NCBI GenBank assembly: GCA_021108415.1
Contig: JAIOQX010000002.1
Coordinates: 310,001 to 374,000, forward strand
Direction: 5' to 3'
Source: Acholeplasmataceae bacterium
GTDB lineage: Bacteria; Bacillota_I; Bacilli_A; Acholeplasmatales; Acholeplasmataceae
DNA length: 64,000 bases
The translations under genes were made by a program, and so were the position numbers. The number at the start of each line of letters is the position of its first letter. Positions within the stretch are counted from its first letter, which is position 1. Shown here in pieces: positions 40,301 to 63,276 of this stretch. The notes beneath the pieces were generated by a model. That model ran no database searches, was not told the origin of the DNA, and worked only from the letters and a program-made list of their open reading frames with translations.

Positions 40301-40659
40301 TCTACATCTTGCGTTTTTTCAGACTCAAGTGTCACATGGATATCCCATTGAAATGCTCCAACGATTAAATCTAATTGATAGTTTATATCTTTAAAACGTC
40401 CTTTATATACAACCTTATCATCTAAAAATTCAACATGTGTCAAAACATCTCTACAAATAAGAGCAGTTGATTCAAAAGATCCGTTTATCTTAGTTCTCAT
40501 ATATACATTCATTAAAGATCCATCTAAAGCATTTCCTTTTAATAGATTAATTTGATAATCATGATATGAAACATCATATATATCTCCAGTTTCTAAAAAT
40601 CGAAAGGTTAACCCACCTTTATGGATTGTATTTAATTTCAGATTGTTTTTTATAATCAT
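37378..40659 (-). CDS. GH94 1,2-beta-oligoglucan phosphorylase
   Basis: The 1093-residue protein has the length and layout of the 1,2-beta-oligoglucan phosphorylase (SOGP) branch of GH94, longer than the 780-820 residues of cellobiose phosphorylase. A long beta-sandwich N-terminal half is followed by the (alpha/alpha)6 barrel with PHGLEQYNGAAWGTRDVCQG and then GGDWDDTLQPANHDLT. Asp747 in WDD is the expected general acid. SOGP releases alpha-glucose 1-phosphate from beta-1,2-linked glucans in the cytosol; there is no signal peptide. It overlaps GH3 as ATGA and ends the operon. Specificity is inferred from subfamily and context. Confidence 0.85.
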   Translation of the reverse strand: MIIKNNLKLNTIHKGGLTFRFLETGDIYDVSYHDYQINLLKGNALDGSLMNVYMRTKINGSFESTALICRDVLTHVEFLDDKVVYKGRFKDINYQLDLIVGAFQWDIHVTLESEKTQDVELFYGQDVAIQNKSSVLSSEAYTVQYIDYKVKQDNHGYTLSAKQNQGAPQYLQIGSYSNNIGFSTDGFQFFGKSYKSTQLPEALYIDKLESVIKQYEFSYLTIQSEKISINKKAHFSFYGYYEAERLNSETKDMIDIDMLPYQIESDITLSKLNSTYQRYHVLNGDDLTETQVSALFPNQRHIEKNLDKTLSFFTDHHHHVVLKEKEQLVERPHGHLMIHGDILHVSDHVMATTNFMFGIFNSHIVLGNTSFNKFLGDLRNPLNVQKISGQRIYIKKDGKYHILSIPSYYEMGGATTRWYYAFEDDALIVDVSVDIHKASQSLKIYSKNHKKYDFIITQQILLDVNEYMGDITYQQEEDSVLFSISGKTMAAMKYPNLKYKMTIGKSAQIISESDFLGLEEQHGLFILKYNDSSEISIKTQASFDEFEASDLSYEQADELGTKYFKSILNQAELAHKDDQANMNKLNDTLFWYTHNALVHYASPHGLEQYNGAAWGTRDVCQGPVELFAAAGKYDLIREILLKVYQRQFIENGDFPQWFMFGKFYQIQAHEAHGDIIIWPLRTLGYYLQATSDFSILDEKVPYMSMHKNEFTESYGLIEHIKKQINTIKESFIPNTYLPRYGGGDWDDTLQPANHDLTTKMVSGWTVALLYESVHLLGAELESKDKELSEELLALAKNIKADYKKYMIVDGIPSGFVVFEDNNQLSYLLHPRDQKTGLKYRLLPFVRSFISELAEKEVMNDYINLIDKIFMHPDGVRLMDTAVKYEGGKKTYFVRAETAANFGREIGLQYVHAHIRYIESMAKIGASQRAYNAIFQIVPIQMKEHVKNAEIRQSNMYFSSSDADFNNRYEAKKDFELVRQGNIKVKGGWRLYSSGPGIFIHQIIHHILGVGQYHQDLHIDPVITKAQDGLTFTSQFEDKTIKITYHYGDEKLLINGLGVSYKQTQNSYRQSGYIIDKNLVLNTEEPIHIEVWSN

Positions 40660-42794: not shown

Positions 42795-42808
42795 GTTATC
42801 TCCTTTAA

Positions 42809-43768
42809 TTAGCAAGACTCTCTAATAATAATTTGTCCTTCTGGGTGCTTAACTTCATTTAATTTCTTATCTTTAATGAGATCAGAAAGTGCTTGTGCAA
42901 CACTTTTACCCCATTTTAAATGATCAATACCAATAGTTGTTAATTTAGGGGTTAAATATTCGCCTAAATAAATATTATCAAATCCCGCTAGTGCTATATC
43001 TTTAGGCACATGTATCTTCATCTCTCTAAGTGCTTTCATTAATCCAATTGCGGATTCATCATTCGCACAGTAAACAAAACGAGGTTTTTTCTCTTCTAGT
43101 CCAATTTGTTGACCGATTTGATACCCACCTTGAATCGTAAAGTCACCTTGATAGTACTTATGGTCGTTGATATTTTCATCTTTTAATGCTTGTTTAAATC
43201 CATCATATCGATGATTGTTGTTAAATGAATCATTTGGACCAGAAAGATATGCAAAATCTCTATAGCCTTTTTTAACCATCTCTCTAATGAAGTTATATAC
43301 AATACCTTCATTGTCGATAACAGATGAATAAATATTTTTACCTTCTATGATTCTGTCTAAGACAAATGTAGGAAAATCGTGAGATGCAAAGTTTTTTAAA
43401 CATTCATCAGTTAAATTATTATCAAAGATGATTGCACCATCTACTTGTCTTTCATTCAATAAGTTTTCTGATGATTTGCCTGAACTAACGATAATGTTAA
43501 ATCCGTTTTCTTGTAAATTCTGTCTAATACCTTCTAATACATCACTAAAGATTGGACCGCTAAATCCATAAACAAAAACTCCTATATTCCCAGTTTTTTT
43601 TGTTTTTAAATTTCTAGCAATTCCATTTGGATAATAGTTTAGTGATTTGGCTGCATCTAAAATACGTTGTTTTGTCTCTGGGTGTACACTAGGTAGGTTG
43701 TTTAGAGCATATGATGCTGTTGAAATGGATACACCAGCTTTTTTTGCGACGTCTTTTATTGTAGGCAT
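42809..43768 (-). CDS. LacI-family transcriptional repressor of the glycan locus
   Basis: The 319-residue regulator has the LacI helix-turn-helix TIKDVAKKAGVSISTASYAL (residues 3-22), the hinge helix around ILDAAKSLNYYPNGIARNL, and a periplasmic-binding-protein-like sensor domain. It is third in the operon it probably controls. LacI proteins bind palindromes with a central CG. GAAACGTTTC-type sites are present at two promoter regions of this locus (46598-46611 and 52561-52578), with a variant at 52649-52660. The inducer is likely a sophoro-oligosaccharide, by inference from neighbours. Confidence 0.9.
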   Translation of the reverse strand: MPTIKDVAKKAGVSISTASYALNNLPSVHPETKQRILDAAKSLNYYPNGIARNLKTKKTGNIGVFVYGFSGPIFSDVLEGIRQNLQENGFNIIVSSGKSSENLLNERQVDGAIIFDNNLTDECLKNFASHDFPTFVLDRIIEGKNIYSSVIDNEGIVYNFIREMVKKGYRDFAYLSGPNDSFNNNHRYDGFKQALKDENINDHKYYQGDFTIQGGYQIGQQIGLEEKKPRFVYCANDESAIGLMKALREMKIHVPKDIALAGFDNIYLGEYLTPKLTTIGIDHLKWGKSVAQALSDLIKDKKLNEVKHPEGQIIIRESC

Positions 43769-43772
43769 AAAG

Positions 43773-45380
43773 TTAATCTCCTATCTTTAATATGCATGAA
43801 AAATATGGGGGTAATACTACTTCTTTATCAAATACAAAATTCTGATAATTTGTATGTATGATTTCAAATTTTTCATGTGGTAGTTTGAATGATATATCAT
43901 GATCTTTAAATGAACAAATTATCAAAAATTTTTCCTGTTTATAGCTTCTGTAGTAACTAAAATGATCTTTATTATCTTTTTCATATAATTGGAAATCTCC
44001 TAACCTAAAAACTTCATTGGTTTTTCTAATTTGAAAAAGTTTCTTAAAATATGCAAATACACTTTGTTGATCAGCTAAATCTTTAGCTGCATTTAAGTCT
44101 TTATAGTTTGGATTGACACCCAACCAAGGTTCTTTATTGCTAAACCCTGCATAAAGCGTATCATCCCATTGAAACGGTGTTCTAGAATTATCTCTTCCTT
44201 TTGCATATATAGATTCCATAATATCTTTATGGTTGATGCCTTGTTTTTTTAAAATATCGTATATTTGTAAAGTCTCTATATCTTTATATTTAGAAATATC
44301 TTCATGTTTGATACCAGTCATCGCAATTTCTTCACCTTGATAAACAAATGGTGTGCCTTGCATACCATAGATTAATGTTGCAAGCATCATTGCACTATGT
44401 TTTGGATATAAAAGTGAACCATATCTGGTTAAAGCTCTTGGTTGATCATGATTAGCTAAAAACAATGCATTCCAACCTTGTTTGTAGAAGGTATGTTGAA
44501 CTTTATTAAATGTTTCTTTTAATTCTAGGACATCAAGCTTTTTTAAAGCCCATTTACCTTTGCCTGGAATCTCATCTAATCCGATATGTGAAAACTGGAA
44601 TACCATATCTAGATAAGGGTTATCCTCTGATGTTAGCTCTGATGATCTCTTAATTGATAAACCAGGAGTTTCTCCTACGGTCATGATATCTCTTGATTTA
44701 AAACAAGTCTCATTTAATTCTTTCAAGTAAGTTTCTAGATAAGGTCCATCTGCAAGCATTTTTTTATCAATATCTTTTCCAATCAAATCAATGACATCCA
44801 ATCTAAATCCATCAATGCCTAAATCTAGCCACATATTAATCATGTCATAGATTTCTTGTCGCATCTCTTTATGATGCCAGTTTAAGTCTGGTTGGGATTT
44901 GGCAAACAAATGAAAATAATAAGACTTACTTATTTCATCATATGTCCAAGCAGGTCCACCAAAAATCGATTCTATATCCGTTGGTTCATCTCTCCAAATA
45001 TAGTAATCTCTATATTTAGGGTCATTTGCCTTACTCTTTTTAAACCATTCATGCTCATCAGATGTATGGTTAATCACTAAGTCCATAATGAGTCTCATTC
45101 CTTTATCATGAACTTTTTGAATGAGTGATTTCATATCATCCATCGTACCAAATATCGGATTTATTTTATGGTAATCACTAATATCATAACCATTATCTCT
45201 CATGGGTGATTGATAGACTGGTGATAACCATATCACATCAACACCTAACGTTTTTAGATAATCAAGCTTTGATGCGATTCCATTAATGTCTCCAATGCCA
45301 TCGTTATTAGAATCTTTAAAGCTCAATGGATATATCTGATAGACAAGTGCATCTTTAAACCATTTTATTTTCTTTTCCAT
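43773..45380 (-). CDS. GH13 alpha-glucosidase (oligo-1,6-glucosidase-like)
   Basis: The 535-residue cytosolic enzyme starts KDALVYQIYPLSFKDSNNDG with the GH13 calcium-like motif. It has DLVINHTSDEHEWF, nucleophile Asp195 in GFRLDVIDLIG, acid/base Glu237 in TVGETPG, and the third aspartate in FLANHDQPRALTRYG. A valine after the nucleophile is typical of alpha-1,6-active members of GH13_31, whereas alpha-1,4 enzymes often have alanine. It is out of theme among beta-glucan enzymes and may deal with alpha-branches or a second substrate. It overlaps the upstream gene by 16 bases. Confidence 0.88.
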   Translation of the reverse strand: MEKKIKWFKDALVYQIYPLSFKDSNNDGIGDINGIASKLDYLKTLGVDVIWLSPVYQSPMRDNGYDISDYHKINPIFGTMDDMKSLIQKVHDKGMRLIMDLVINHTSDEHEWFKKSKANDPKYRDYYIWRDEPTDIESIFGGPAWTYDEISKSYYFHLFAKSQPDLNWHHKEMRQEIYDMINMWLDLGIDGFRLDVIDLIGKDIDKKMLADGPYLETYLKELNETCFKSRDIMTVGETPGLSIKRSSELTSEDNPYLDMVFQFSHIGLDEIPGKGKWALKKLDVLELKETFNKVQHTFYKQGWNALFLANHDQPRALTRYGSLLYPKHSAMMLATLIYGMQGTPFVYQGEEIAMTGIKHEDISKYKDIETLQIYDILKKQGINHKDIMESIYAKGRDNSRTPFQWDDTLYAGFSNKEPWLGVNPNYKDLNAAKDLADQQSVFAYFKKLFQIRKTNEVFRLGDFQLYEKDNKDHFSYYRSYKQEKFLIICSFKDHDISFKLPHEKFEIIHTNYQNFVFDKEVVLPPYFSCILKIGD

Positions 45381-46582
45381 TTGAGCACTTCCATTCCATT
45401 AATGATTGTGTGATGACTCATAAAAGCTTTATAAACTGATCTTTTTTTTACTGCATCTATCATCAGTAATATTAAGCCTTGATTAATTCCGTAATATCGA
45501 GGTGAAATCCATTTTTTTCCATCTTCCAAATTAAACGCATCATAAAAACCATATGGTCCATATAATCCATCAATATCTTTCATATCAAGATATGCTTGAT
45601 ATGAGATTTCTTTAGTAAATGGAAAAGATCCTAGCGCACTAGAAGGTGAGACTGTTCCATCTGTTCTTAATTTATCAAATACATTCGGTAAAGCATGAAA
45701 CACTCTATATCCATTTGGTGTGTCACTTGCGGTAAACCCGAAGAATGTTTTAGAAAATGTCTTATAAATATGTTGATGGTCAAGACTACATTTGATGTGA
45801 TTAAGTGTTGCAAGTCTAGCGTTTTCAAACCAAGAGATACCTTGTTGATCATAGATGTTTTCTAAGTCTAGGAATGCTAATGGAAATTGATACACAAATA
45901 ATGTATTTCCTGGGGTAATGATAAAATCTTGGTGATTATGTGTCGCTTTCATACGATCAAAATCATTATATAAATCAAGAGCTTCTTTTGGATTTTTATC
46001 CGCAACAAATAAATACATCATTAATTGTTCAGCAAACATATCCCATTGATGAATAAATCCTGGGATGTCTTTGATATAGTCTCCATCTTTGTTTGGATTA
46101 AAAGCCATGTGTAAATATTTTTTGTTGTTTCTTTCAAATATAAAATGTTTCCAATCAACACGTTCCATAATTTGATTAGCCAGAACTTCTACTTCATCTT
46201 TAAAATAAGATGAAACTGCAACCACACCACAAAGACAAAGTGATGTATCGATTGTAGAAATTTCATTTTTCTTATATCTTTCTGCTGTATTAAAATCTAA
46301 AAAATGAAAGAAAAACCCATGATAATTAGGTACATTATATAATAATGTTTTTAAAGTTAGATATGCTTGTTTTTTTGCTTTTTCAAAAGTTATATACCCA
46401 TTGTCTACTCCAATAACTAAGGAAGACAAATAAAATCCTGTTGATGCAATAGACGCAACTTCTAATCTTTGTGTATGATCAAGAGAAAGCCCAAAACCTT
46501 TTGAGTTTTCATCTAAATTTGTATATGTTTGAAAATAATTAAATATTCTTTTTTGTAAGTCATCTAAATTAGATAAATCCAT
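45365..46582 (-). CDS. GH144-like beta-1,2-glucanase, cytosolic paralogue
   Basis: The 405-residue protein belongs to the Glycoamylase/PF10091 fold family that includes GH144. Segments shared with the lipoprotein paralogue at 53928-55283 include GFGLSLDH, EVASIASTGFYLSSL, GFFFHFLDF, EISTIDTSL, SDTPNGYR and YGPYGFYDAFN. It lacks a signal peptide and is thus cytosolic. An exo-type role on imported oligosaccharides (release of sophorose) would fit, since some GH144 enzymes are exo-acting. The start at 46582 follows TGGGAG. It is the first gene of the LacI-controlled operon. It could instead act on another beta-glucoside. Confidence 0.72.
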   Translation of the reverse strand: MDLSNLDDLQKRIFNYFQTYTNLDENSKGFGLSLDHTQRLEVASIASTGFYLSSLVIGVDNGYITFEKAKKQAYLTLKTLLYNVPNYHGFFFHFLDFNTAERYKKNEISTIDTSLCLCGVVAVSSYFKDEVEVLANQIMERVDWKHFIFERNNKKYLHMAFNPNKDGDYIKDIPGFIHQWDMFAEQLMMYLFVADKNPKEALDLYNDFDRMKATHNHQDFIITPGNTLFVYQFPLAFLDLENIYDQQGISWFENARLATLNHIKCSLDHQHIYKTFSKTFFGFTASDTPNGYRVFHALPNVFDKLRTDGTVSPSSALGSFPFTKEISYQAYLDMKDIDGLYGPYGFYDAFNLEDGKKWISPRYYGINQGLILLMIDAVKKRSVYKAFMSHHTIINGMEVLKWKRK

Positions 46583-46597
46583 GATTTTCTCCCAAAA

Positions 46598-46611
46598 TTG
46601 AAACGTTTCGA
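46598..46611. promoter_or_regulatory. LacI-type operator in the divergent GH144/GH35 region
   Basis: TTGAAACGTTTCGA contains the perfect palindrome GAAACGTTTC (46600-46609). It lies just downstream of the minus-strand -10 and upstream of the plus-strand gene, so one bound repressor could control both. The sequence matches a second, longer palindrome before the large lipoprotein gene. Confidence 0.8.
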
Positions 46612-46622
46612 TACCTAATTCT

Positions 46623-46651
46623 ATTTTATATGATAAAATATAAAAAAACAA
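46623..46651 (-). promoter_or_regulatory. Promoter of the GH144-GH13-lacI-GH3-GH94 operon
   Basis: On the minus strand TTGTTT (46646-46651) and TAAAAT (46623-46628) are 17 bases apart. The palindromic operator lies in the initially transcribed region, a classic repressor position. Confidence 0.55.
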
Positions 46652-46691
46652 TCATTTTGTACAAATTTATGTTAAATAAGGAGCTATTTAT

Positions 46692-49007
46692 ATGTCAATC
46701 AAAACAAAAGACTATCGCTTTGTAAAAAACGGGAAGTATCACTTAATTTTAGCTGGTGAAATACATTATTTCAGACTACCAAAAGAATCTTGGGAAATGC
46801 ATCTTGATATCGCAAAATTAACTGGAATCAATACGATTGCGACCTATGTCCCATGGATTATACATGAAGAAATATATCGTCAATATGAATTTAGTAATGA
46901 CTATGACTTAGCTCATTTTATTACTTTATGTAAGAAGAAAAATCTTGATGTCATCTTAAAACCCGGACCTTTTATCATGGCAGAGTTAAAAAATGAAGGA
47001 TTGCCATATTGGCTTTATGAAAAATATCCAGAAATCATTCCTAAAACTTGGGAAAATCGCGCAGTAACTACACCAATGATAGATTACCTACACCCTACTT
47101 TCCTTAAAGAAGTTTATGTTTGGTATCAAAAATTAATAAACATTCTATCACCATTTATTAACTCAGTTGATAATCCTATTGTAGGTATTCAATTAGATAA
47201 TGAAGTTGGTATGTTATCATGGGTATCTAATCAACCAGAATTAACAAAAGATATCATTTCATCACTAAAAGCTCATCTACCGTCTTTAGTTAATCCTTAT
47301 CATCCAGCACATGATGAGAGTCTAATCTATCATGATACATTAGAAACTTTAATGAGAAAAAGATATGAGTCATATATTCAAAAACTTAAAGCATATTTTA
47401 AAGAATTAGGTTTAAAAGATATACTATATTTTATTAATATTCATGGCACATCAAACGGTAGAGGAAAAAACTTTCCGATTGGTGTAAGTCAACTAATTGA
47501 CACTTATAAATCACATGCAGATATTTATCCTGGACTCGACTTGTATTTTGGAAATATTGACATCGAAAACTTCCATGATTTATACATCGTAAATGCATTT
47601 GTAAAATCAACCTCAAAAGATTTAAAGCCTTATGGAACTTTAGAATTAAATGTTGCAGATGGTAATTTTGGTGACAATTTAGCGATACATCTTCTACCAT
47701 CATCGATTGATTTTAAAATACGTCTTGCATTAATCCAAGATCAAAAGTTTTTAAATTATTATTTACTAACTGCAGGTATTAATCCTAAGCTAAAAGCACC
47801 TAAAGCTGATGACTTAAATCAAAGAGTTGCCATTACAGGTGCAAGACATGGATATGCAGCACCCATACAAGTCGATGGAAGTTTATTGTATACTTATGAT
47901 ATCTTAAAAAAGACAACTCAAATGATAAACAATTTTACTTACTATCTTTCTTCTATGAAAGAACAAACTGATGATATTGTTGCTTGTTTTATGATGGATA
48001 GCTATAAAACTGAATATCATATGCCTTCATCAGATACCATTCAAAAGAAAAATGATAACTTATCTCTACATAGAAACTCAGTATATTGGGATACGCTTTT
48101 AAAACAAATGCTTCTTCTCAATTATAGTTTCAAAAGTTTTTGGATAGAGGGTGAACTTACTATTGATCCTGCTATTAAATTGTTTATCACAAATACATCA
48201 ACATATATGTCAACATCGAACCAAGAAAAAATAGTCGAATACTTAAAAACTGGAGGTAAGGTTATTTTTGTAGGAGATCTGCCAACAAAAGACTTATTTG
48301 GTCAAGACCAAACAACTTTAATTGATTATCTAAATCTTGAACCTGTAAGAAATTATTATGATTGGGAAGATCATTTGCTAACACTAACCTCTGATGTAGA
48401 GATTTATGGTCAGAATGAATTTAGAAGTTTTATTGCACAAAGTATAAAAACTGATGAGAAACCATTGTTTAGACATTTAATCACTAAAGAGGCTATCGGT
48501 GTTAAATCAAAACAATACGTTTGGATTACATCCAATTATCCAGGTCATCTTGTATATACAAAAGATATCCTTGATCACTTAAACATTCAAGGAACACTCA
48601 CAATTAAGAAGCAAAAAGGATTTATACTATCATTTAAACAATCTTATCAAGACATCAATTTATATCATCTCATTAATTTAGAACATTTCAAGCAATCTGT
48701 CACACTTTATGAAAACGAAATTGTCTTGTTTGATAATCACCAAATTGACATAAACGCTCAAGAAGCGTTAATGCTTTGGACAAATATTAGAATAAATCAA
48801 GAAACATTCATTTATTTGACTGGAGAAATACAGTCCTATACAAAAGATTCATACACTTTAAATATTGATCATAAGACAGTCTATCTTAAAATAAGAACAG
48901 ATCGCAAATTAATCAACGATTCTGATGTCACTTCATCATATCAAAATGGTGTATATGAGATTATTATTAAAGATGTTTCTGATCAAATCGTATTAAAATT
49001 TCAATAA
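46692..49007 (+). CDS. Divergent GH35-family glycosidase
   Basis: The 771-residue protein has the GH35 beta-galactosidase-like barrel in its first 330 residues: LAGEIHYFRLPKESWEMHL, GINTIATYVPWIIHEE, LKPGPFIMAELKNEGLPYWL and the acid/base Glu171 in QLDNEVG. The usual SEFY nucleophile region is replaced by GTLELNVADGNFGDN, where Glu318 is the candidate nucleophile. No signal peptide is present. The C-terminal half contains a glutamine-amidotransferase-like and beta-sandwich region. GH35 members have been reported that act on beta-1,2-glucosides as transferases, so this context favours a non-galactosidase role. The ribosome site is AAGGAG. Confidence 0.78.
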   Translation: MSIKTKDYRFVKNGKYHLILAGEIHYFRLPKESWEMHLDIAKLTGINTIATYVPWIIHEEIYRQYEFSNDYDLAHFITLCKKKNLDVILKPGPFIMAELKNEGLPYWLYEKYPEIIPKTWENRAVTTPMIDYLHPTFLKEVYVWYQKLINILSPFINSVDNPIVGIQLDNEVGMLSWVSNQPELTKDIISSLKAHLPSLVNPYHPAHDESLIYHDTLETLMRKRYESYIQKLKAYFKELGLKDILYFINIHGTSNGRGKNFPIGVSQLIDTYKSHADIYPGLDLYFGNIDIENFHDLYIVNAFVKSTSKDLKPYGTLELNVADGNFGDNLAIHLLPSSIDFKIRLALIQDQKFLNYYLLTAGINPKLKAPKADDLNQRVAITGARHGYAAPIQVDGSLLYTYDILKKTTQMINNFTYYLSSMKEQTDDIVACFMMDSYKTEYHMPSSDTIQKKNDNLSLHRNSVYWDTLLKQMLLLNYSFKSFWIEGELTIDPAIKLFITNTSTYMSTSNQEKIVEYLKTGGKVIFVGDLPTKDLFGQDQTTLIDYLNLEPVRNYYDWEDHLLTLTSDVEIYGQNEFRSFIAQSIKTDEKPLFRHLITKEAIGVKSKQYVWITSNYPGHLVYTKDILDHLNIQGTLTIKKQKGFILSFKQSYQDINLYHLINLEHFKQSVTLYENEIVLFDNHQIDINAQEALMLWTNIRINQETFIYLTGEIQSYTKDSYTLNIDHKTVYLKIRTDRKLINDSDVTSSYQNGVYEIIIKDVSDQIVLKFQ

Positions 49008-49012
49008 AATGC

Positions 49013-49045
49013 AAAAAGGTATAATCGATTTTGATTATACCTTTT
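49013..49045. terminator. Bidirectional terminator between GH35 and the large lipoprotein gene
   Basis: AAAAAGGTATAATC and GATTATACCTTTTT form a perfect 14-bp stem (49013-49046) with loop GATTTT. It has T-runs on both strands and so ends both convergent genes. Confidence 0.88.
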
Positions 49046-49083
49046 TTATTATATAACTTATTATGTATGATTAATGTATGTTT

Positions 49084-52000
49084 TTATTCTGCGTCAACAA
49101 AACTTACCATTGTTGCTAGTGTTGCATAAGTTCCAGTTAAATCTGAAGAAGGTACAGAAGCTATATTGAATGCAATATACTCATAGTCTCCCCAGAATGC
49201 GTCATCTAAAACGATTGTGCCAGTTAAATAACCAGTTCTCATCATAACTGTGTATGTATTGTGATCATAGCCGATATAAATAACTTTAATTTGATATCCA
49301 GCATCAACCACGATTGAGCCTTTACCATCAAATGAAGCTTTTGATAATACATTTGATGCTGCAAAACCTAAGTCAAATGCTGTAGTTCCAGTTGTAATTG
49401 ATGTTGCATTGTCATTGTAATAACCTTGTTGGAAGCTTAATGCTGTATCAACATGATCAACTAAAACTTCATCAAACATTGAGAATACTAATTGATTTGG
49501 TAATGTAGCTAATTCACCAGATATATCAGTTCCACCTGTTGTAGATGAAATATTAAATGCGATATATTGATAATCTTTATACATAGCTTCAGTTATTAAG
49601 ACTGCTTCACTGTAATCACCAGTTCTAAATAATACTTTATATCCTTCTTCTGCTGAATAAGATAAGAAGATTAATTTAACTTTATATCCAGTTTCTGGAG
49701 TAATGATTGTTCCAGCAGGAATAAACTGTCTAGGAACTACATCAGATGCTGCATATTGTTTAATGAATGAAGTATCACCAGTCGTAATTGAAGTTGCACC
49801 GCCACCCCAATATCCACTTGTAAATGTAAGATCATCGCGAACAAATGTTAATTGATTAACTAACGTATCTAACTCACCAGAAATATCTGAAGTAGGAGCT
49901 GTAGAGAAATTAAATGCGATATACATATCAGTTCCCCAGAAAGCATCATCTAATGTGATTGTTCCAGTTAAAGCAGCAGTACGGAAAGTTACTTGATAAT
50001 TTCCATATCCATCATAAGATAGATAAATTACTTTTAATGCATAACCATCAGCAACTACGATTTCAGAAACGCCATCAAAATATGCTTTAGATAAAACATT
50101 TGATGCTGCATATTTTTTATGGAAATCAGTATCGCCAGTCGTAATTGATGTTGCATTGTCTGCCCAGTAACCAGTTACTAAAGTGATTTCTTGGTCATAA
50201 TGAATCACTTGATTTGGATGCATATCAACATACATGTCGATATCTTCAGGAAGAAGAGCTGTTGTTTCATCTGTAGTTGTTACAATAAATCCTATAATTG
50301 CTTTATCTTCAGCAAATGTTGGATTAACCCAAAGTTGTTCTGTTTGATAATCACTTACATAAGATGCTGTATAAACTTGATCTGCAAATGTATAAACTAC
50401 ATAAGCAAACTTATAACCAGCAGGTACTTCAATTACTGTGTCTAAATTATAGAAAGCAGGAGTTAAAGGACTTGAGATTAAATGATTTGGAGAAGCTGTT
50501 ACTGATGTATCATCAGTCATCACATATCCATTTGTCCATTCAAGATCATAGTCAATATGATTATCTAATGTTCCAGTAGGATGATAAAGTGTTAACATAC
50601 CAGCAACTTCTGCTAGTCTTGCACTAATATCGCCTGTTGGTACAGATGAGATATTAAATGAAATATATTGATAATCTCCCCAGAATGATTCACTTACGTA
50701 AGTGTATGCAGCTGATGAATTGTTATTTCTATGAACAACTTTAAATCCATCGCCATCTCTTTCTAAGAAAATTACACGGAATTGATAACCATTTTCAATC
50801 ATGATTGAAGATCCAACAGGTAATAAACCTTTTGGAATTGGTGTAACAACTGCATAATTATTATACAATGCGTCTGTATCAGGAGAAACTGAAGTTGCTC
50901 CATCTGAGTAGAAACCTTGTGCAAATTCAAATGCTAATTCATCACCGTAATCTATATCAGCAGTTTTAGCGATTGAAACATTTTTGAAATATAGCTTAGT
51001 TAGAATATCATCTGCTCCAGTAAAGCCATCTTGATTTCTCATAGAACCAAACCAGAATTGTAGATTTCTATTCATAACTGTAGCATCTACAGCAACAGAG
51101 AAATCAAATGTATATGTATCCCATTCAGTTGTTAATGCTTGTGCAAAACTAATATTTTCTAAACCAACACCACCATTACCTTCCATTGCAACGATTATTG
51201 ATCTAGCAACGTCAGCTTTAGCTTGGAAAGTTAAACGATATTCACCAGCGAATGCTGCTAAATTTTGTACTTTAAATTGATTTTCCCAAATATTACCATC
51301 TACTGAGTCTACATTTGTAATATCAACTTCTACCACTTCATCAACAGTAGTAACTGTTAAGCCACCTCTAGTTGATTCATACCATGTTTCCCAACCCACA
51401 GGAACACCAGTAACAGCGTCTACATCAGCAAATCCTGGAATTTCAAATGCGTCAGCAACATACAATGTTCTAGTAAACGTAGTTGTTTCATTATCACTAT
51501 CAGTTACACTATATACAAATGTATATGTACCTTTTACAGCTGGAGAACCAACAACAAATGGTACTTCTGAAGTGTCAGTGTAAGTTACATCGTCTAATGT
51601 AAGTACATCTCTATCATCACCAACTGTTAAGCCACCTTTAATTAAAAAGTTCGTTGCACCAACTGGTAATAAGATATTAGTTGTTGCAGTTAATGTAGGT
51701 GCTTGGTTTTCTAATTCTGGACCAGCAACGATTGATACATTAGAAATATAAACTGTACCTAATACTGTTTGTTCAGCTGCAGGAACACCATCCACTTTAT
51801 GGAAAGTACCTAAACCAAATTGAAGTTCAACACCACCAGTTGAATCCATTGTTGTGAAAAAATCAATTGAAACTACTACATCCGATGTAGTAACATCAAC
51901 AACATGATTGTTAATTGGTTTCTTATCTAATCCGCCACCTTGAATATTAACCATCATCTTACGAGCTGCATCAGCTTTAACTGTAAAATTAAGTGTATAA

Positions 52001-52536
52001 GATTCAAATGCTTTTAACACTAATGTTTTTTGAGATAATTGAACATCCCACCAGTTATTATCCATAAGAATAGATTGTGCTGTAATATCTATTTCAGCAA
52101 CACCATTGTTTACAGAATAAGTAGCAGCAACGTCTTGAGATTCATTAACCCAAGTTGCCCAACCATTAAGGTCATCTGAGAAATCACCATTAACGAAACC
52201 AGCTAAACCCATAACAGATACAACACGTTGTTTGACTGCTTCGTTCCCAGCAGCATCTGATACTGTATAAACTACAACATAATCTCCAGCACGATTAACG
52301 TTAACTGTGTCTCCAGATACAACGATAGCGCTTGTTAAGTCACCATCAACATCATCTGTTGCACTAACGCCAGCCATTGGATCAAAAGCTTCACCTACAG
52401 AAATTTCAACTGTAGCTACACCAGTGATCACAGGTTTTACTGTGTCTGTATCACCAACTGGTTCTTCACCATCTTTACATGCAACAATTGCAAATAACAT
52501 GGTAAACATTAATAAAAATAAACTAATTTTTTTCAT
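49084..52536 (-). CDS. Large modular lipoprotein with repeat domains, putative glucan-binding
   Basis: The 1150-residue protein has a lipoprotein signal with lipobox FAIVAC (Cys about residue 20). An Ig-like domain follows (about 35-110, DUF5011-type: TDDVDGDLTSAIVVSGD). Next come a carbohydrate-binding-like jelly roll (about 112-275), a second Ig-like domain (about 285-365) and a second jelly roll (about 366-525). Five repeats of about 120 residues fill the C-terminal half, marked by GYWADNATSITTG, AASNVLSKA, VIYLSYDG, DDAFWGDYEYIAFN and SDLTG-like blocks. No catalytic domain is seen. It probably binds glucan at the cell surface. The start is set to the second of two adjacent ATGs because GGAGG is 5-6 bases from it. 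Confidence 0.8.
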   Translation of the reverse strand: MKKISLFLLMFTMLFAIVACKDGEEPVGDTDTVKPVITGVATVEISVGEAFDPMAGVSATDDVDGDLTSAIVVSGDTVNVNRAGDYVVVYTVSDAAGNEAVKQRVVSVMGLAGFVNGDFSDDLNGWATWVNESQDVAATYSVNNGVAEIDITAQSILMDNNWWDVQLSQKTLVLKAFESYTLNFTVKADAARKMMVNIQGGGLDKKPINNHVVDVTTSDVVVSIDFFTTMDSTGGVELQFGLGTFHKVDGVPAAEQTVLGTVYISNVSIVAGPELENQAPTLTATTNILLPVGATNFLIKGGLTVGDDRDVLTLDDVTYTDTSEVPFVVGSPAVKGTYTFVYSVTDSDNETTTFTRTLYVADAFEIPGFADVDAVTGVPVGWETWYESTRGGLTVTTVDEVVEVDITNVDSVDGNIWENQFKVQNLAAFAGEYRLTFQAKADVARSIIVAMEGNGGVGLENISFAQALTTEWDTYTFDFSVAVDATVMNRNLQFWFGSMRNQDGFTGADDILTKLYFKNVSIAKTADIDYGDELAFEFAQGFYSDGATSVSPDTDALYNNYAVVTPIPKGLLPVGSSIMIENGYQFRVIFLERDGDGFKVVHRNNNSSAAYTYVSESFWGDYQYISFNISSVPTGDISARLAEVAGMLTLYHPTGTLDNHIDYDLEWTNGYVMTDDTSVTASPNHLISSPLTPAFYNLDTVIEVPAGYKFAYVVYTFADQVYTASYVSDYQTEQLWVNPTFAEDKAIIGFIVTTTDETTALLPEDIDMYVDMHPNQVIHYDQEITLVTGYWADNATSITTGDTDFHKKYAASNVLSKAYFDGVSEIVVADGYALKVIYLSYDGYGNYQVTFRTAALTGTITLDDAFWGTDMYIAFNFSTAPTSDISGELDTLVNQLTFVRDDLTFTSGYWGGGATSITTGDTSFIKQYAASDVVPRQFIPAGTIITPETGYKVKLIFLSYSAEEGYKVLFRTGDYSEAVLITEAMYKDYQYIAFNISSTTGGTDISGELATLPNQLVFSMFDEVLVDHVDTALSFQQGYYNDNATSITTGTTAFDLGFAASNVLSKASFDGKGSIVVDAGYQIKVIYIGYDHNTYTVMMRTGYLTGTIVLDDAFWGDYEYIAFNIASVPSSDLTGTYATLATMVSFVDAE

Positions 52537-52560
52537 CATTTCCTCCTATTTTTTTGTTTT

Positions 52561-52578
52561 AATCGAAACGTTTCGATT
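52561..52578. promoter_or_regulatory. LacI-type operator before the large lipoprotein gene
   Basis: AATCGAAACGTTTCGATT is a perfect 18-bp palindrome between the promoter and the ribosome site. The core GAAACGTTTC is identical to that of the operator at 46600-46609. Confidence 0.85.
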
Positions 52579-52590
52579 ATAGAAACTTCT

Positions 52591-52612
52591 AATGCATCAT
52601 TTTCGATGCATT
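52591..52612 (-). promoter_or_regulatory. Hairpin in the leader of the large lipoprotein mRNA
   Basis: AATGCATC and GATGCATT form a perfect 8-bp stem with a 6-base loop. It is not followed by a T-run on the minus strand, so it is not an obvious terminator. It may stabilise the mRNA or help process it. Confidence 0.45.
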
Positions 52613-52639
52613 AAATGTCTTTTTTCTTATTATATTTTT

Positions 52640-52668
52640 AGTATACTTGAAACCGCTTTCTTTATCAA
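52640..52668 (-). promoter_or_regulatory. Promoter of the large lipoprotein gene with operator in the spacer
   Basis: On the minus strand TTGATA (52663-52668) and TATACT (52640-52645) are 17 bases apart. The spacer holds GAAAGCGGTTTC (52649-52660), a near palindrome of the LacI/CcpA type. This would let a repressor block polymerase binding directly, apart from the second operator downstream. Confidence 0.7.
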
Positions 52669-52685: not shown

Positions 52686-53909
52686 TTATTGATATTGTGA
52701 AACGGTTACCTCAAACATTTGCATATAAGCATTATTTACTGCTTCTTTAGCAATTAAAAGATCTTGATCAGTCATTGTTGATGGTTTATATTCAATATCA
52801 TCAATAGAGTAACCAGTTATCGTTTTAAACCACATAAGAGCTGTAACATAGCGTCCATAAGTGTTTAAGTGGTAGCCGTCACGATTCATATTATCACCAA
52901 CTACACTTGAGCGTACATTTTGAATTGCTGTGCCTGCAGGAATGATTTGTCTAAATGTTTCATCATTTAAAATCAAGTTTTGATTTACATTCATAATTGC
53001 TTCGTACATAGTCATTTGATCACGATCATATGTAGGAAAACCACTATGTGTAGAATTTTGAGCATAAGCCCATGTTTGATGCCACATAAATGTAGTATCT
53101 GTTAGTTTGTTTTCATTTACATAATCAACTAAATCATCTAAAAAAGGTTGATATGATTCTTCTACACCTGTTAATGGACTTGCTTGTTGCATAGTTATAA
53201 TATCCCATTGTTCATCTAATAGACCAATAAGTAAACTCTTATTGCCTTTATTTTCCCATTCATTATCAAAGTTTTTTTCATATCGATAACTTGATGTGCC
53301 ATTAGTGAATGTATTATAGTGAGTTTCTAGTGAAGAACCACCAATATAAAGATAAGCAAATGTTACATTTGTAATACCATAGTCAGCTGCAATTTCTCCT
53401 AAATAAGTCATTGCATCTTCACTAAAACTATTTCCGATTGCTAATACTTTTAAAGAATCACTATAATCTTTAACACCAGGAGTTGTTCCATCTCTTGTAA
53501 TTGACTTAACAGAAACGTATGCTGATGATGACATATCTTTACCCTTAATTCTAAGCATACTTTCACCAATCACACTACCTACAACGCTTAAATAACTGTC
53601 AGTAGATCTTTGGTTAAAGTTAATGTTTTTCATTGTTTCATCAACAACAAATTTACCATCTTCAACTTTACCAAATAAGTATTCTATTGAATCAAACTCA
53701 CCATCAATTAATACATGTTTTTCAATCGTTTCCCCAACATTAATTTCTAACATATAAGGAGATTCTAACGTACCTTCTCCAACAAGACCTACAACAGAAA
53801 TATCTATTGAGTCTGGTCCTTCATCTACAACTTCTTCTTCCTCTTTTGCGCAAGCCGCAAACATACCAAGTGATGCAACTAGCAGTAAAACCATCCAAAA
53901 CTTTTTCAT
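52686..53909 (-). CDS. DUF4886 SGNH-hydrolase-like lipoprotein
   Basis: The 407-residue lipoprotein has a signal with lipobox FAAC (Cys20) and an N-terminal Ig-like part (about 30-130). The DUF4886 SGNH domain (about 148-390) has block I SLKVLAIGNSFSEDAM with the nucleophile Ser and a C-terminal DGYHLNTYGRY block with the Asp and His. SGNH enzymes remove ester groups. As cyclic beta-1,2-glucans often carry substituents such as succinyl or phosphoglycerol, removing such a group is possible, but this is inference. It follows the GH144 lipoprotein gene by 18 bases. Confidence 0.78.
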   Translation of the reverse strand: MKKFWMVLLLVASLGMFAACAKEEEEVVDEGPDSIDISVVGLVGEGTLESPYMLEINVGETIEKHVLIDGEFDSIEYLFGKVEDGKFVVDETMKNINFNQRSTDSYLSVVGSVIGESMLRIKGKDMSSSAYVSVKSITRDGTTPGVKDYSDSLKVLAIGNSFSEDAMTYLGEIAADYGITNVTFAYLYIGGSSLETHYNTFTNGTSSYRYEKNFDNEWENKGNKSLLIGLLDEQWDIITMQQASPLTGVEESYQPFLDDLVDYVNENKLTDTTFMWHQTWAYAQNSTHSGFPTYDRDQMTMYEAIMNVNQNLILNDETFRQIIPAGTAIQNVRSSVVGDNMNRDGYHLNTYGRYVTALMWFKTITGYSIDDIEYKPSTMTDQDLLIAKEAVNNAYMQMFEVTVSQYQ

Positions 53910-53927
53910 TTTTATATCCTCCTTTTT

Positions 53928-55283
53928 CTATTCAACATTTAAAAATCCCAGGTTAATTAACCCTTGTCTAACATTTTCATTTTGCATGAAATATGTCCAA
54001 ATTAACTCAGATCGATAATTTTCAATCATGAGTAATGAAATACCTTTGTCAATACCTAAGTAATCCGAGTCATACCATGGTGTGATTGCAGCTATTGTTG
54101 GATTGTAAAATGAATCAACAGGACCTAAATTATAAGCATCTTTTAATCCATATTCACCTATTAGTCTTGAGTCATCGTAAAAATTCTGAACTGCCATTAA
54201 AGATTCATATTCTAAGTAATTAACTGAAGCAACCGCTGCATATGGTGCAATCGTTCCATTATGACTATTAGATTTAGCTGTTTGCGCACCATAAGCTCTA
54301 TATTCATTTGGTCCATCAGATGCTGATATACCCCATGAAGTTTCGCTATAAGTTACATATCGATCTGCATAATCTTGAGTATATAAATAATTTGCTCTTG
54401 TAGCCATCGTTGCATTGGTAAACCAATCGGTACCTTGATAATCTATAATATCTCTAAAATCAATAAATGCATGTGAGAATTGATGTTGAAATAATGATCC
54501 GTCATGTGTGTAGTAATACGGTCCAACAATTTCACCTGTGGTTGTTGATTCATAAGTTCCATAATAATTAACTTTAACTCTAGATTTAACTGTTTTATAT
54601 AATGAGTCATCTGTTGGATATGTGTCAGAACCTGCAGCAAGAACATATAAGATCATTTGTTCAGATATATGATCCCATGCGCCTCCAAATCCATCTTCTG
54701 GCTTATAGCCCATATAAAACATGTTATTACTATCGTTTACATACCAAGTCCAATCAACACCATCATAGATTGTATTTGCTAAATCTTTAACTGTGCCACC
54801 AAAATATTCAGCAACCACTAAAGCTCCTGCAATCATAAGTCCAGTATCGATTATAGAAACTTCAGAATTCCAAGCTCTAAGACCTGTAGACATATTTAAA
54901 AAGTGATAATAAAAACCATTTGTTCGCTCAAGAGTCAATAAATTTTCAAGAGTTTTTTGTGCTCTTTCTTGACCTTCTGCTTCTGTAATCCAACCATTTT
55001 CAACACCAGCAGGAATACTTGCTAATGAAAATCCAACTGAAGCTACTGAAGCGATAGTTGCATTTCCTGGGTATCTATCTCTTGATAGCCCATAACCTGG
55101 TGATCCTTCTTGATGATTGGTTTGTTCCCAAAAAAAGTTAAAAGCCAATTCTGCTTCGTTATATAATATTTCTTTTTGAACCTTTAGAGGGTCATCAACG
55201 GGAACTTCTGTTTCTTCTTTGTTGCACGCTGTTATGGTTACTAAACTCAGTAACAATAAAAGTAACAATAGTGTTTTTTTCAT
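53928..55283 (-). CDS. GH144-like endo-beta-1,2-glucanase lipoprotein
   Basis: The 451-residue protein has a lipoprotein signal with lipobox ITAC (Cys20) and then an (alpha/alpha)6 barrel of the PF10091/GH144 kind. Segments include EQTNHQEGSPGYGLSRDRYP, TIASVASVGFSLASIPAGVE, GFYYHFLNMSTGLRAWN, EVSIIDTGLMIAG and SASDGPNEYRAYG. GH144 members cleave beta-1,2-glucan, the founding enzyme being endo-acting. Its surface location fits initial depolymerisation before ABC import. It is often labelled 'glucoamylase family', but the alpha-amylase type of chemistry is not implied. It directly follows the second permease pair. Confidence 0.78.
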   Translation of the reverse strand: MKKTLLLLLLLLSLVTITACNKEETEVPVDDPLKVQKEILYNEAELAFNFFWEQTNHQEGSPGYGLSRDRYPGNATIASVASVGFSLASIPAGVENGWITEAEGQERAQKTLENLLTLERTNGFYYHFLNMSTGLRAWNSEVSIIDTGLMIAGALVVAEYFGGTVKDLANTIYDGVDWTWYVNDSNNMFYMGYKPEDGFGGAWDHISEQMILYVLAAGSDTYPTDDSLYKTVKSRVKVNYYGTYESTTTGEIVGPYYYTHDGSLFQHQFSHAFIDFRDIIDYQGTDWFTNATMATRANYLYTQDYADRYVTYSETSWGISASDGPNEYRAYGAQTAKSNSHNGTIAPYAAVASVNYLEYESLMAVQNFYDDSRLIGEYGLKDAYNLGPVDSFYNPTIAAITPWYDSDYLGIDKGISLLMIENYRSELIWTYFMQNENVRQGLINLGFLNVE

Positions 55284-55285
55284 AT

Positions 55286-56221
55286 CTATTCTCCTGTAAT
55301 TCCTGCTCTATCAATACCTTCAATAAACCATCTTTGCATGATGAAGTATACCAAAAGCATTGGTGCAATGATCAGCATAGTCGCTGCCATTCTAACTGCT
55401 TCGTTCGCATAATTAAGTGCTTGCGAACTACCTAAAATCGATGAATATTCAGAAACAAAATCTGCTAATCTCATTTGTAAGGTTTCGACACCGTTACCTA
55501 AGAATAATGTTGAGATGTAGGTTTCGTTCCAATACCATACAAAACTAAATAAGAAACTTGTAATAAATGATGGTATAGACAATGGAATTGCGATTTTAAA
55601 ATAAATGTAGAGTCTACTTGCGCCATCAATTTGTGCTGCTTCATCTAATACCATAGGAATCATTTTATAGAATTGGTAAAAGATTAATATAAAGATAGCT
55701 GAATTAAGACCTTGCCCAAGTGTTGCTGGTATGATGATTGACCAAACAGTTTCTAAGATACCTAAATTAAAGAATAACACATATTTAGGAATCATCGTCA
55801 CTTGTGGTGGAATAATATAGGTTGCTACAACTAAAGCTAATAAAGTCTTTTTAAATGGGAAATTAAATCTCGCAAATCCATAACCAACCAAAGATGCAAT
55901 AATTGTTTGTAATATTGCAGGAAGCAATGTTACAGCAACACTTGATCCCATTGTTTCAAAATATTTTAAGACCGTAAATGCATCACTATAATTATTAAAA
56001 TATAGAGCTGTTGGTACTTGACTTACCATCGGATTTAATAAATCTTGCAAGCTTTGGAAACTAAATGAAACCATATGAAGTAATGGATATACATATACAA
56101 AGCCAATGGTTATAAGCAACAAATAAATTAAACTACGAAATACGATACCATCTGTTAGTTTATAGCCAAACAATTTTCTTCTAATCGTGTGTTTATTGAA
56201 TAATCTTGTTTTTTGTGTCAT
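55286..56221 (-). CDS. Carbohydrate ABC transporter permease, MalG-like (second pair)
   Basis: The 311-residue membrane protein has six predicted helices and the EAA loop LDEAAQIDGASRLYIYFKIA (about residues 195-214) that docks the ATPase. It belongs to the CUT1 family of oligosaccharide importers. It starts 2 bases after the MalF-like gene stop and precedes the GH144 lipoprotein gene by 2 bases. With the MalF-like neighbour it forms one heterodimer. No solute-binding protein is dedicated to this pair in the window. Confidence 0.9.
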   Translation of the reverse strand: MTQKTRLFNKHTIRRKLFGYKLTDGIVFRSLIYLLLITIGFVYVYPLLHMVSFSFQSLQDLLNPMVSQVPTALYFNNYSDAFTVLKYFETMGSSVAVTLLPAILQTIIASLVGYGFARFNFPFKKTLLALVVATYIIPPQVTMIPKYVLFFNLGILETVWSIIIPATLGQGLNSAIFILIFYQFYKMIPMVLDEAAQIDGASRLYIYFKIAIPLSIPSFITSFLFSFVWYWNETYISTLFLGNGVETLQMRLADFVSEYSSILGSSQALNYANEAVRMAATMLIIAPMLLVYFIMQRWFIEGIDRAGITGE

Positions 56222-56223
56222 GG

Positions 56224-57219
56224 CTATCTCCTAACTTTCTTGATTTTAGGTTTTCTCTGATAGGCAATAAGCATCACAGTGATGCCTAAAATCATTGCAA
56301 CAATCAAGAAATAAACCCAAGCTAGTGCAGCAGAATATCCATACCCTCTAGAGGTATCAAACATCAGTGTTTGAATATGTTTGATAATCGAGTTGGTAGA
56401 AAATGTTGCAAGCATAACAATCGTATAGACAGCGCTCACTAAGATTATGTTTCTTAATGAAGGTAGGGTAATCTTCCAAAAAGATTCCCATGGAGATGCA
56501 CCATCAATTTGTGCAGCTTCATATATTTCTTGGTCTATTTTTTGTAAGCCTGCTAAAAATAGGACAATTTGCACACCAGAAAACCAAAGAATAATAATAA
56601 TTTTAGAAAATAAATTAGTGATTGGTTCTGCTAAAATTGCAGGTAATATAGATTCAATTGTTTCAATGACAGCTAATTGTTGAATGAGTGGTATAGATCC
56701 TGCTTCTTGTTGTAACAATTCATTAATAACAGGTCCACTTACAATAATAACCGGGAGGAAATATATAGATCTAAAAAATCCTCTTAATTTAATTTTTTGA
56801 TTGAGTAATATCGCAATTAACATAGAAACAATTAATATAATAGGTAATTGTAGAACAATATCGCCGATAAACTCACGCAAATAATCAATAAACTCTAAAT
56901 CTGTCGTAAATATTTGAATATAATTGGTAAGTCCTACCATCTCAAACTGTATCCCTTCACCACCAGTAATGGTCACTTTGTTTAAACTGTAATATAAAGA
57001 GTTTAATAAAGGGTAAAGTGTTAATGTAATAAATCCAAATATCCAAATTGAAATGAACGAATATCCTTGTAAACTTTCTCTTAGGCGATTGGTAATCTTT
57101 TGATGAAATTTATTAAACCATATGATTTCTTTATTTGATATGCGAATAAACCAGTTATGTGTGAGCACATACCCTATTTTTTTAAACACGTTTTGGATGA
57201 TATGAAGTGTCTTTCTCAT
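56224..57219 (-). CDS. Carbohydrate ABC transporter permease, MalF-like (second pair)
   Basis: The 331-residue permease has an unusually long basic N-terminal tail of about 50 residues before the first helix (FISIWIFGFITLTLYPLL). Five further helices follow, and the EAA loop YEAAQIDGASPWESFWKI lies near residue 240. It pairs with the MalG-like gene that follows. It overlaps the DUF5696 gene as ATGA, so translation is coupled. Confidence 0.9.
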   Translation of the reverse strand: MRKTLHIIQNVFKKIGYVLTHNWFIRISNKEIIWFNKFHQKITNRLRESLQGYSFISIWIFGFITLTLYPLLNSLYYSLNKVTITGGEGIQFEMVGLTNYIQIFTTDLEFIDYLREFIGDIVLQLPIILIVSMLIAILLNQKIKLRGFFRSIYFLPVIIVSGPVINELLQQEAGSIPLIQQLAVIETIESILPAILAEPITNLFSKIIIILWFSGVQIVLFLAGLQKIDQEIYEAAQIDGASPWESFWKITLPSLRNIILVSAVYTIVMLATFSTNSIIKHIQTLMFDTSRGYGYSAALAWVYFLIVAMILGITVMLIAYQRKPKIKKVRR

Positions 57220-61456: not shown

Positions 61457-61465
61457 GTCATCCTC

Positions 61466-62338: not shown

Positions 62339-62340
62339 AA

Positions 62341-63276
62341 TTAATCCTTCTCTCCAAATATTTTATATGCCGCTCTACCAAATATATAAACCATGATTAA
62401 AAGAACTATAGATACAGTTGCTGCATAGCCCATTTCATATCTTATAAATCCATAGTCATCAATATGCGTTACAATTAATTGCCCAGCATTTTGAGGTGTC
62501 GGATTTTGTCCCGAAAGCTGGACACCAATAGATCCTGCATTAAAGGTTGCTACTAAGCTCATGACTGCTCCAAAAAGCATCTGAGGTTTCATAGATGGAA
62601 TGGTAATAAAAAATATTTCTTGGAATTTATTGCTCATTCCATCAACATAGGCAGCCTCATACAGTGTTTGATCAATATTTAGAACACCTGCAAGCATTGC
62701 TAAAAATCCAATACCCATTGAACTCCATAGGGTAACAACAATCATAATTGTCATTAAATAATCTGGATTTGTAAGCCATTGAATCGGTTGTTCTATTAAA
62801 TTAAAGTTTAATAAAATTGAATTTAAGTATCCATTTGCATCACCTGAAAATATTATTTTCCACATTACTGCCATTGCAACACCAGCGGTCATTGATGGTG
62901 AATAAATAATAAGTGCAAAGACGGTACGGATCTTAGAAGGAAGTTGTGCGAGTAACCATGCTAAAAAGAATCCTAGCATATATCCCACAGGACCTACAAT
63001 TAATGCAAATTTTATTGTATTTGGAATAACATTTTGCATAAAGATATCATCACTGGTAAACAGTGAGATATAGTTGTTTAATCCTACATAGGATGGTGTA
63101 TTTAATAAATTAAATGATGTTAATGATAATAACATCCCCATCGCAACTGGAATCGTAATGAATGCAAAGAAAGCTAGGAAATATGGCATGATAAATAAAT
63201 TTCCTGTTAACTCATCTTTACCCCATTGTATTTTCTTTTTCTTTTTAGGGATTGGTGTCATTTGTGCATCAACCAT
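62341..63276 (-). CDS. Carbohydrate ABC transporter permease, MalF-like (first pair)
   Basis: The 311-residue permease has six helices. A lysine-rich N-terminal segment ([14 protein letters not shown]) precedes the first helix, and the EAA loop [20 protein letters not shown] lies near residue 215. I place the start at 63276 because TAGGTGA sits 6-7 bases upstream. It overlaps the solute-binding protein gene by 8 bases at that start. It belongs to a CUT1 oligosaccharide importer. Confidence 0.9.

What the first reader, a model, noticed from the sequence alone, without database searches (positions are those of the whole stretch)
46598..52668. A small LacI regulon with operators in three distinct promoter positions
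GAAACGTTTC lies downstream of the -10 at 46600. A perfect 18-bp version lies in the leader at 52561, and GAAAGCGGTTTC lies exactly between the -35 and -10 at 52649. The regulator gene is inside one of the controlled operons, giving negative feedback. The double site at the big lipoprotein gene suggests tight control of surface exposure, or joint control by LacI and CcpA.
Basis: partly seen in the sequence, partly recalled or inferred. Interest (0 to 1): 0.6.

Follow-up and report, generated by a model that had tools for sequence, protein, structure and literature searches.

The report
LacI regulon for beta-1,2-glucan use
A small sugar-utilisation switch in an Acholeplasma-like bacterium: one dedicated LacI repressor appears to control three neighbouring transcription units through near-identical DNA sites, while the uptake and surface genes carry a second, general 'better sugar is present' lock; it is a well-supported new example of an ordinary kind of bacterial gene control.

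Summary
ATCGAAACGTTTCRAT at 46597-46612 and 52560-52579 is the operator of the window's own LacI (42809-43768). A whole-genome scan finds TNGAAACGTTTCNA exactly three times in 1.78 Mb: these two and a third 3.7 kb beyond the window, before the ABC substrate-binding gene that heads the transport operon. Across 88 family genomes, 26 of 27 with a LacI ortholog (>=51% identity) carry TCGAAACGTTTCRA and 1 of 61 others does (Fisher p=5e-20; reversed control 0 of 88). The site at 52649 has another register (GAAANCGNTTTC) and is a CcpA-type cre in the 17-bp spacer between -35 and -10. A strong cre lies within 200 bp upstream of the operator at 32 of 37 surface/uptake promoters and 1 of 13 enzyme-operon promoters (shuffles 0.4 and 0.1). 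The genome has a CcpA-like protein and HPr kinase. Reading: LacI repression with autoregulation on every unit, plus catabolite repression on uptake and surface genes only. Binding, effector and repression are inferred. New member of a known kind.

The parts
46597..46612 (-). LacI operator 1, ATCGAAACGTTTCAAT on the minus strand; centre about 18 bp after the -10 of the GH144-GH13-lacI-GH3-SOGP operon (lac O1-like, about +12) and 22-24 bp before its ATG
   Evidence: at the same place in 9 of 17 relatives examined
46623..46651 (.). inferred divergent promoters: minus-strand -35 TTGTTT (46651-46646) and -10 TAAAAT (46628-46623); plus-strand extended -10 TATGATAAAAT (46629-46639) for GH35
   Evidence: no transcription data
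45365..46582 (-). GH144-type (PF10091) enzyme, first gene of the operon (ATG at 46582; the 46651 TTG start is unlikely)
43773..45380 (-). GH13 alpha-amylase-family enzyme
42809..43768 (-). LacI-family regulator, 319 aa, inside the operon it is predicted to control
40656..42815 (-). GH3 beta-glucosidase-type enzyme
37378..40659 (-). [quoted passage not shown]
   Evidence: Pfam SOGP domains; best PDB hit 5h3z E=3e-239
46692..49007 (+). divergent GH35 protein, best solved relative beta-1,2-glucosyltransferase 7vkw; possibly under operator 1 as well
52560..52579 (-). LacI operator 2, 20-bp perfect palindrome in the leader of the surface lipoprotein gene, centre 70 bp after the -10 and about 31 bp before the ATG
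52648..52661 (-). cre-type site AGAAAGCGGTTTCA in the spacer between -35 and -10 (CcpA-type, not a LacI operator)
52640..52668 (-). core promoter TTGATA-17-TATACT of the lipoprotein gene
52590..52613 (-). leader stem-loop between -10 and operator 2
49084..52539 (-). surface lipoprotein (1151 aa; Ig-like and CBM_4_9 domains) under cre + operator 2
52686..64000 (-). transport/surface operon (DUF4886 lipoprotein, GH144-type lipoprotein, permeases, accessory proteins) running to the SBP gene at 66281-67732, headed by cre + operator 3 beyond the window (67749-67762)
   Evidence: single transcript inferred from spacing

Best explanation
This is a local LacI-family regulon for uptake and breakdown of beta-1,2-glucan (sophoro-oligosaccharides). 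The LacI protein binds ATCGAAACGTTTCRAT at three places. At operator 1 it sits just after the start point of the enzyme operon that contains its own gene (blocking initiation, with negative feedback), and probably also overlies the upstream part of the divergent GH35 promoter. At operators 2 and 3 it sits far down the leader, just before the ribosome site, where it most likely blocks elongating polymerase. Imported oligosaccharide would release it. The lipoprotein and transport promoters carry in addition a cre inside the core-promoter spacer, where CcpA with HPr-Ser-P would exclude polymerase when a better sugar is present. So catabolite repression closes uptake and surface capture, and the specific repressor closes everything. 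Shown by sequence: sites, registers, positions, genome-wide uniqueness, conservation, co-occurrence. Inferred: binding, sign of regulation, effector, roadblock, CcpA action.
For: Only 3 exact genome-wide matches, all in the locus. 26 of 27 against 1 of 61 co-occurrence of site and LacI ortholog in 88 genomes, reversed control 0. Of 61 sites in 27 genomes, 41 lie on the lacI contig and 40 of these within 25 kb. Near-invariant recognition helix in the 16 orthologs of >=53% identity among 17 relatives examined, with the operator at the same place before the first enzyme gene in 9 of the 17. Enzymes and solved relatives fit beta-1,2-glucan. Cre >=10/11 within 200 bp upstream of the operator at 32 of 37 surface/uptake promoters against 0.43 expected, 1 of 13 at enzyme promoters. 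CcpA-like protein (293 bits, below the curated 442) and HPr kinase (352 bits, cut-off 240) present. Literature: LacI motifs are mostly even palindromes with central CG (PMC4052901 passages); cre overlapping promoters represses (PMC3463425 passages); acholeplasmas have CcpA and HPrK (PMC5138195 passages).
Against: No binding, expression or effector data exist. One ortholog-bearing genome (G018, 51% identity, 77% complete) has no exact site and one genome without ortholog (G079) has one, inside an ORF. At the looser cut E<=1e-60, 26 of 33 genomes with a hit have the site; the 51% cut was chosen after seeing the gap between 43% and 51%. In L042-L044 the enzyme operon lacks the operator. The CcpA candidate is below the curated cut-off. 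The genomes are related, so the counts are not independent.
Confidence: 0.83

Rival explanations
1. All sites, including GAAACGTTTC, are variants of one global CcpA-type element and the local LacI is irrelevant.
For: Both are LacI-family palindromes with a central CG; CcpA candidate and HPrK present.
Against: The exact operator occurs only 3 times in the genome, all in the locus, tracks the LacI ortholog in 26 of 27 genomes and is absent from 60 of 61 others although acholeplasmas generally have CcpA (PMC5138195). The registers differ by one base per half-site.
Confidence: 0.04
2. The 52649 site is a second, weaker operator of the same LacI, so the lipoprotein promoter has two LacI sites, perhaps looped over the conserved 85 bp.
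For: Centre-to-centre distance is 85 bp in window, G087 and G086, about eight helical turns.
Against: Different half-site spacing. The element fits cre at 10 of 11 positions. Similar cre-type elements lie at 20 places genome-wide (<=1 mismatch), 15 outside ORFs of >=100 aa. At other promoters its distance to the operator varies from 25 to 177 bp.
Confidence: 0.07
3. Another of the eight LacI paralogs (for example C3:354285, with a similar recognition helix) is the true binder.
For: Eight LacI proteins in the genome; the C3:354285 helix VSVSTVSYALS resembles VSISTASYALN.
Against: Co-occurrence is with the cluster's own LacI. Six genomes whose only hits at E<=1e-60 are 39-43% identical lack the site. 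The upstream region of the C1:526050 paralog carries a different spacing, CGAAAACGTTTTCG.
Confidence: 0.05
4. Operators 2 and 3 act mainly after transcription starts as RNA elements of the leader (palindrome plus stem-loop next to the ribosome site) rather than as protein sites.
For: Both lie 23-31 bp before the ATG and leaders hold stem-loops.
Against: The DNA letters are held exactly, beyond what pairing needs, and track the LacI ortholog; operator 1 is at the classical lac O1 position.
Confidence: 0.01

Closest known systems
Local LacI/GalR sugar-catabolic regulons (e.g. the LacI-TF set of PMC4052901)
   Same: Even palindrome with central CG, regulator inside a controlled operon, few operons, carbohydrate genes in one cluster
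   Different: Operator centres lie only 22-31 bp before the start codon in the window, nearer than the 140-30 bp zone that paper gives for more than 75% of sites; beta-1,2-glucan pathway and Acholeplasmataceae host
Bacillus subtilis CcpA/cre catabolite repression (PMC3463425)
   Same: cre consensus and promoter-overlapping position, HPr kinase and CcpA-like protein present
   Different: Here the cre recurs inside the core-promoter spacer or near the start point, with a specific LacI operator downstream; CcpA candidate scores below the curated cut-off
SOGP/SGL beta-1,2-glucan gene clusters (Listeria innocua, Ignavibacterium album; PMC8861115, PMC12102758 passages)
   Same: SOGP (GH94), GH3, GH144, SBP-dependent ABC transporter, GH35 glucosyltransferase-like protein
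   Different: No regulator or operator is described in the passages seen; the present cluster adds a large CBM lipoprotein, GH13 and DUF4886
Acholeplasma laidlawii CcpA regulon and 28 predicted TF sites (PMC5138195)
   Same: Same bacterial order, similar promoters, CcpA with three carbohydrate operons
   Different: Its site table is a supplement I could not open, so overlap with this LacI is unknown

Membership tests
LacI-family local regulator and regulon | LacI HTH plus periplasmic-binding-like domain | tested here: met
   PF00356 65 bits, PF13377 101 bits
LacI-family local regulator and regulon | even palindromic operator with central CG | tested here: met
   20-bp perfect palindrome 52560-52579; criterion from PMC4052901
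LacI-family local regulator and regulon | few sites, confined to the pathway genes | tested here: met
   3 exact sites in 1.78 Mb, all in the cluster
LacI-family local regulator and regulon | site co-inherited with the regulator | tested here: met
   26 of 27 against 1 of 61 genomes
LacI-family local regulator and regulon | protein binds the site and is released by the sugar | not testable with these tools
   needs purified protein and ligand
CcpA/cre catabolite repression (site 52649) | match to cre consensus TGWAANCGNTNWCA | tested here: met
   10 of 11 positions as scored
CcpA/cre catabolite repression (site 52649) | CcpA and HPr kinase in the genome | tested here: inconclusive
   HPrK 352 bits over cut-off 240; best CcpA candidate 293 bits, below 442
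CcpA/cre catabolite repression (site 52649) | glucose-dependent repression through the site | not testable with these tools
   needs expression data
beta-1,2-glucan utilisation cluster | SOGP, GH144, GH3 and SBP-dependent ABC transporter together | tested here: met
   SBP matches a family-1 solute-binding protein
beta-1,2-glucan utilisation cluster | enzyme activity on beta-1,2-glucan | not testable with these tools
   homology only

The most novel reading that the evidence does not exclude
The uptake and surface promoters form a reusable 'two-lock' module: a cre built into the core promoter, a leader stem-loop, then a LacI operator acting as a roadblock just before the ribosome site. The stem-loop would form behind polymerase stalled at the repressor and decide whether it waits or is released. 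Repressor, operators and genes travel together between genera as one unit.
Probability: 0.12. Interest if true: 0.55.

Novelty: new member of a known kind. Interest (0 to 1): 0.4.

Why it matters
It gives a specific operator, a regulator and a predicted target list for beta-1,2-glucan use in Acholeplasmataceae, and shows from 88 genomes that repressor and operator are inherited together. It separates two lookalike palindromes by register and suggests a simple logic: catabolite repression gates uptake and surface capture, the specific repressor gates everything. All of it can be tested with gel shifts and reporter fusions.

Tried and rejected
Counting the palindromes with one mismatch in the window alone: not above chance, so the case rests on exact matches genome-wide and on conservation. 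Reading 52649 as a LacI operator: rejected by register and by its company with cre sites elsewhere. A candidate at 52698 (GTGAAACGGTTACC) fits neither operator nor cre by eye and was dropped. Rfam search of eight leader-bearing loci: 0 matches. Literature: the 10-mer GAAACGTTTC in full text gave 20 papers; by title and abstract start, none concerns beta-1,2-glucan or this regulator. Searches for SOGP with repressor/operator (12 of 6,504 listed) and LacI with sophorooligosaccharide (20 of 18,787 listed) showed no paper on a regulator of this pathway among the listed titles; papers outside the library and all supplements were not seen. Automatic promoter picking chose a wrong promoter for the window's operator 1 and for L189; the one given rests on alignment with relatives. 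The class lists used (37 surface/uptake, 13 enzyme) were assigned by me, not blind to the promoters; of 61 sites the remaining 11 are 9 second sites of divergent pairs and 2 that lie inside open reading frames (L176, L182). L183 was classed as uptake although its best cre score is 8.

Full report
Observation. The leader palindrome is 20 bp, TAATCGAAACGTTTCGATTA, 52560-52579. The site at 46600 is ATCGAAACGTTTCAAT read on the minus strand. The site at 52649 is AGAAAGCGGTTTCA on the minus strand, in the 17-bp spacer of TTGATA/TATACT. With one mismatch allowed the window holds no more such palindromes than shuffles do (3 each, against means 1.71 and 1.73).

Genome-wide test. The window is C1:310001-374000 of a 1.78-Mb assembly with eight LacI-family genes. 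TNGAAACGTTTCNA occurs exactly at three places: operators 1 and 2 and C1:377749. The last, 3.7 kb beyond the window, stands before a 483-aa ABC substrate-binding lipoprotein gene (66281-67732 in window scale). From there ten closely spaced minus-strand genes run back to 52686. Their transcription as one unit is inferred from spacing.

Genes. Operator 1 heads GH144-type enzyme, GH13, LacI, GH3 and SOGP. SOGP matches solved structure 5h3z (E=3e-239). The GH144-type protein matches endo-beta-1,2-glucanase 5gzh (E=2e-26; best hit 8xul). The divergent GH35 protein is nearest to beta-1,2-glucosyltransferase 7vkw (E=6e-46), an enzyme type described from a beta-1,2-glucan cluster (PMC8861115, passages). 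The substrate is therefore most likely beta-1,2-glucan; activity is untested.

Conservation. The LacI protein drew 80 loci from named genomes. I examined 17 in detail: L034-L049 and L054. Thirteen of the 17 hold the exact 10-mer; L039 (contig starts inside the first gene), L042, L043 and L044 do not. In nine (L034-L038, L040, L041, L046, L047) it stands directly before the first enzyme gene as ATCGAAACGTTTCAAT. In L043 and L044 that gene follows its neighbour closely, with little room for a promoter. The recognition-helix segment (I/V)STASY is kept in 15 of the 16 relatives of >=53% identity; L038 has ISTVSY, as has L049 at 42%. Of the 65 loci L048-L053 and L055-L113, 9 hold the exact 10-mer.

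Co-occurrence. In 88 genomes of the family, 33 have a LacI hit at E<=1e-60; 27 of them at >=51% identity and 6 only at 39-43%. TCGAAACGTTTCRA is found in 27 genomes, 61 sites; the reversed control pattern in none. The overlap is 26 genomes. G018 has an ortholog and no site. G079 has a site, inside an ORF, and no ortholog. Fisher p=5e-20; the genomes are related, so this is descriptive, and the identity cut was set after seeing the gap. Of the 61 sites 41 lie on the contig of lacI, 40 of them within 25 kb. The four other genomes of the window's own genus lack both ortholog and site (one has a 39% hit); the closest ortholog (83%) is in another genus (G087, the same 83% match as L034, strain zrk7), which suggests transfer or loss of the whole unit.

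Two elements, not one. The LacI operator is GAAAC|GTTTC. The 52649 site is GAAANC|GNTTTC, one base wider per half. It fits the cre consensus at 10 of 11 positions as scored, and is close to the strong-cre consensus TGAAAGCGCTTTCA of PMC3463425 (passages). The genome has 20 such sites with <=1 mismatch (reversed control 10), 15 outside ORFs of >=100 aa. The operator-3 promoter also has a cre-type spacer, TTGTAA-taAGTAAGCGTTTGCAt-TATAAT (9 of 11). I sorted 50 operon-heading operators into 37 surface/uptake and 13 enzyme-operon promoters. Scanning up to 200 bp upstream of the operator, a cre of >=10/11 is present in 32 of 37 and 1 of 13; 30 dinucleotide shuffles give means of 0.43 and 0.13. By my reading of the printed contexts, 22 of the 37 lie in a -35/-10 spacer, and most of the others at or just after the -10. 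Cre overlapping a promoter represses in B. subtilis (PMC3463425). HPr kinase is present over its cut-off. The best CcpA candidate, C4:97527, is below the curated score, but acholeplasmas are reported to have CcpA (PMC5138195, passages).

Positions. At enzyme operons the operator centre lies 16-19 bp after the -10 in most cases; with the start point 6 nt after the -10, the commonest case reported for three Mollicutes including A. laidlawii (PMC5138195), that is about +10 to +13, as for lac O1 (recalled). At the lipoprotein operon it is 70 bp, at the transport operon 124 bp. In all three units of the window it stays 22-31 bp before the start codon. Block of initiation at operator 1 and roadblock at operators 2 and 3 is my inference.

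Divergent GH35. In the five genomes with a divergent GH35 (window, L034, L035, L046, L047) the stretch ATTTTATATGATAAAAT is kept next to the operator; five with the operator but without that gene next to it (L036-L038, L040, L041) have other sequence there. It reads as two overlapping, opposed -10 boxes, so one operator may serve both directions.

Leaders. A stem-loop lies between -10 and operator 2 in the window, G086 and G087 (z -5.9, -5.0, -2.4). Transport leaders fold variably: z -1.6 (window), -6.2 (G086), -2.7 (G087), -0.6 (L153), -1.8 (L154). No Rfam family matches in eight loci. Its role is unknown.

Verdict. What is new is the specific assignment, the family-wide conservation and the regular placing of the cre.

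Noticed in passing
window 52590-52613; L185, L188, L186, L187: Stem-loop in the leader between the -10 and the LacI operator, kept in position with changed letters in two relatives; no Rfam match.
   Followed up: partly
window 46623-46639; L034, L035, L046, L047: ATTTTATATGATAAAAT, two overlapping opposed -10 boxes between the GH144 operon and GH35, seen only where GH35 is divergent.
   Followed up: partly
L157, L159, L161, L164, L166, L168, L171, L172, L173: In one genus two LacI operators about 150-155 bp apart lie upstream of a surface lipoprotein gene and, where the other side was read, a divergent membrane protein of about 375 aa.
   Followed up: no
L028 (G000:C1:523000-529500), upstream of the LacI gene at C1:526050: Another LacI gene has CGAAAACGTTTTCG next to its start and further AAACGTTTTC copies upstream, a different operator spacing in the same genome.
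   Followed up: no
window 37378-64000 and beyond: The four other genomes of the window's own genus lack the LacI ortholog and the operator; the closest ortholog is in another genus, which suggests transfer or loss of the whole cluster.
   Followed up: partly
window 28073-28082: GAAACGTTTT, one mismatch from the operator core, about 64 bp before a 512-aa ORF (28146, +); not tested further.
   Followed up: no
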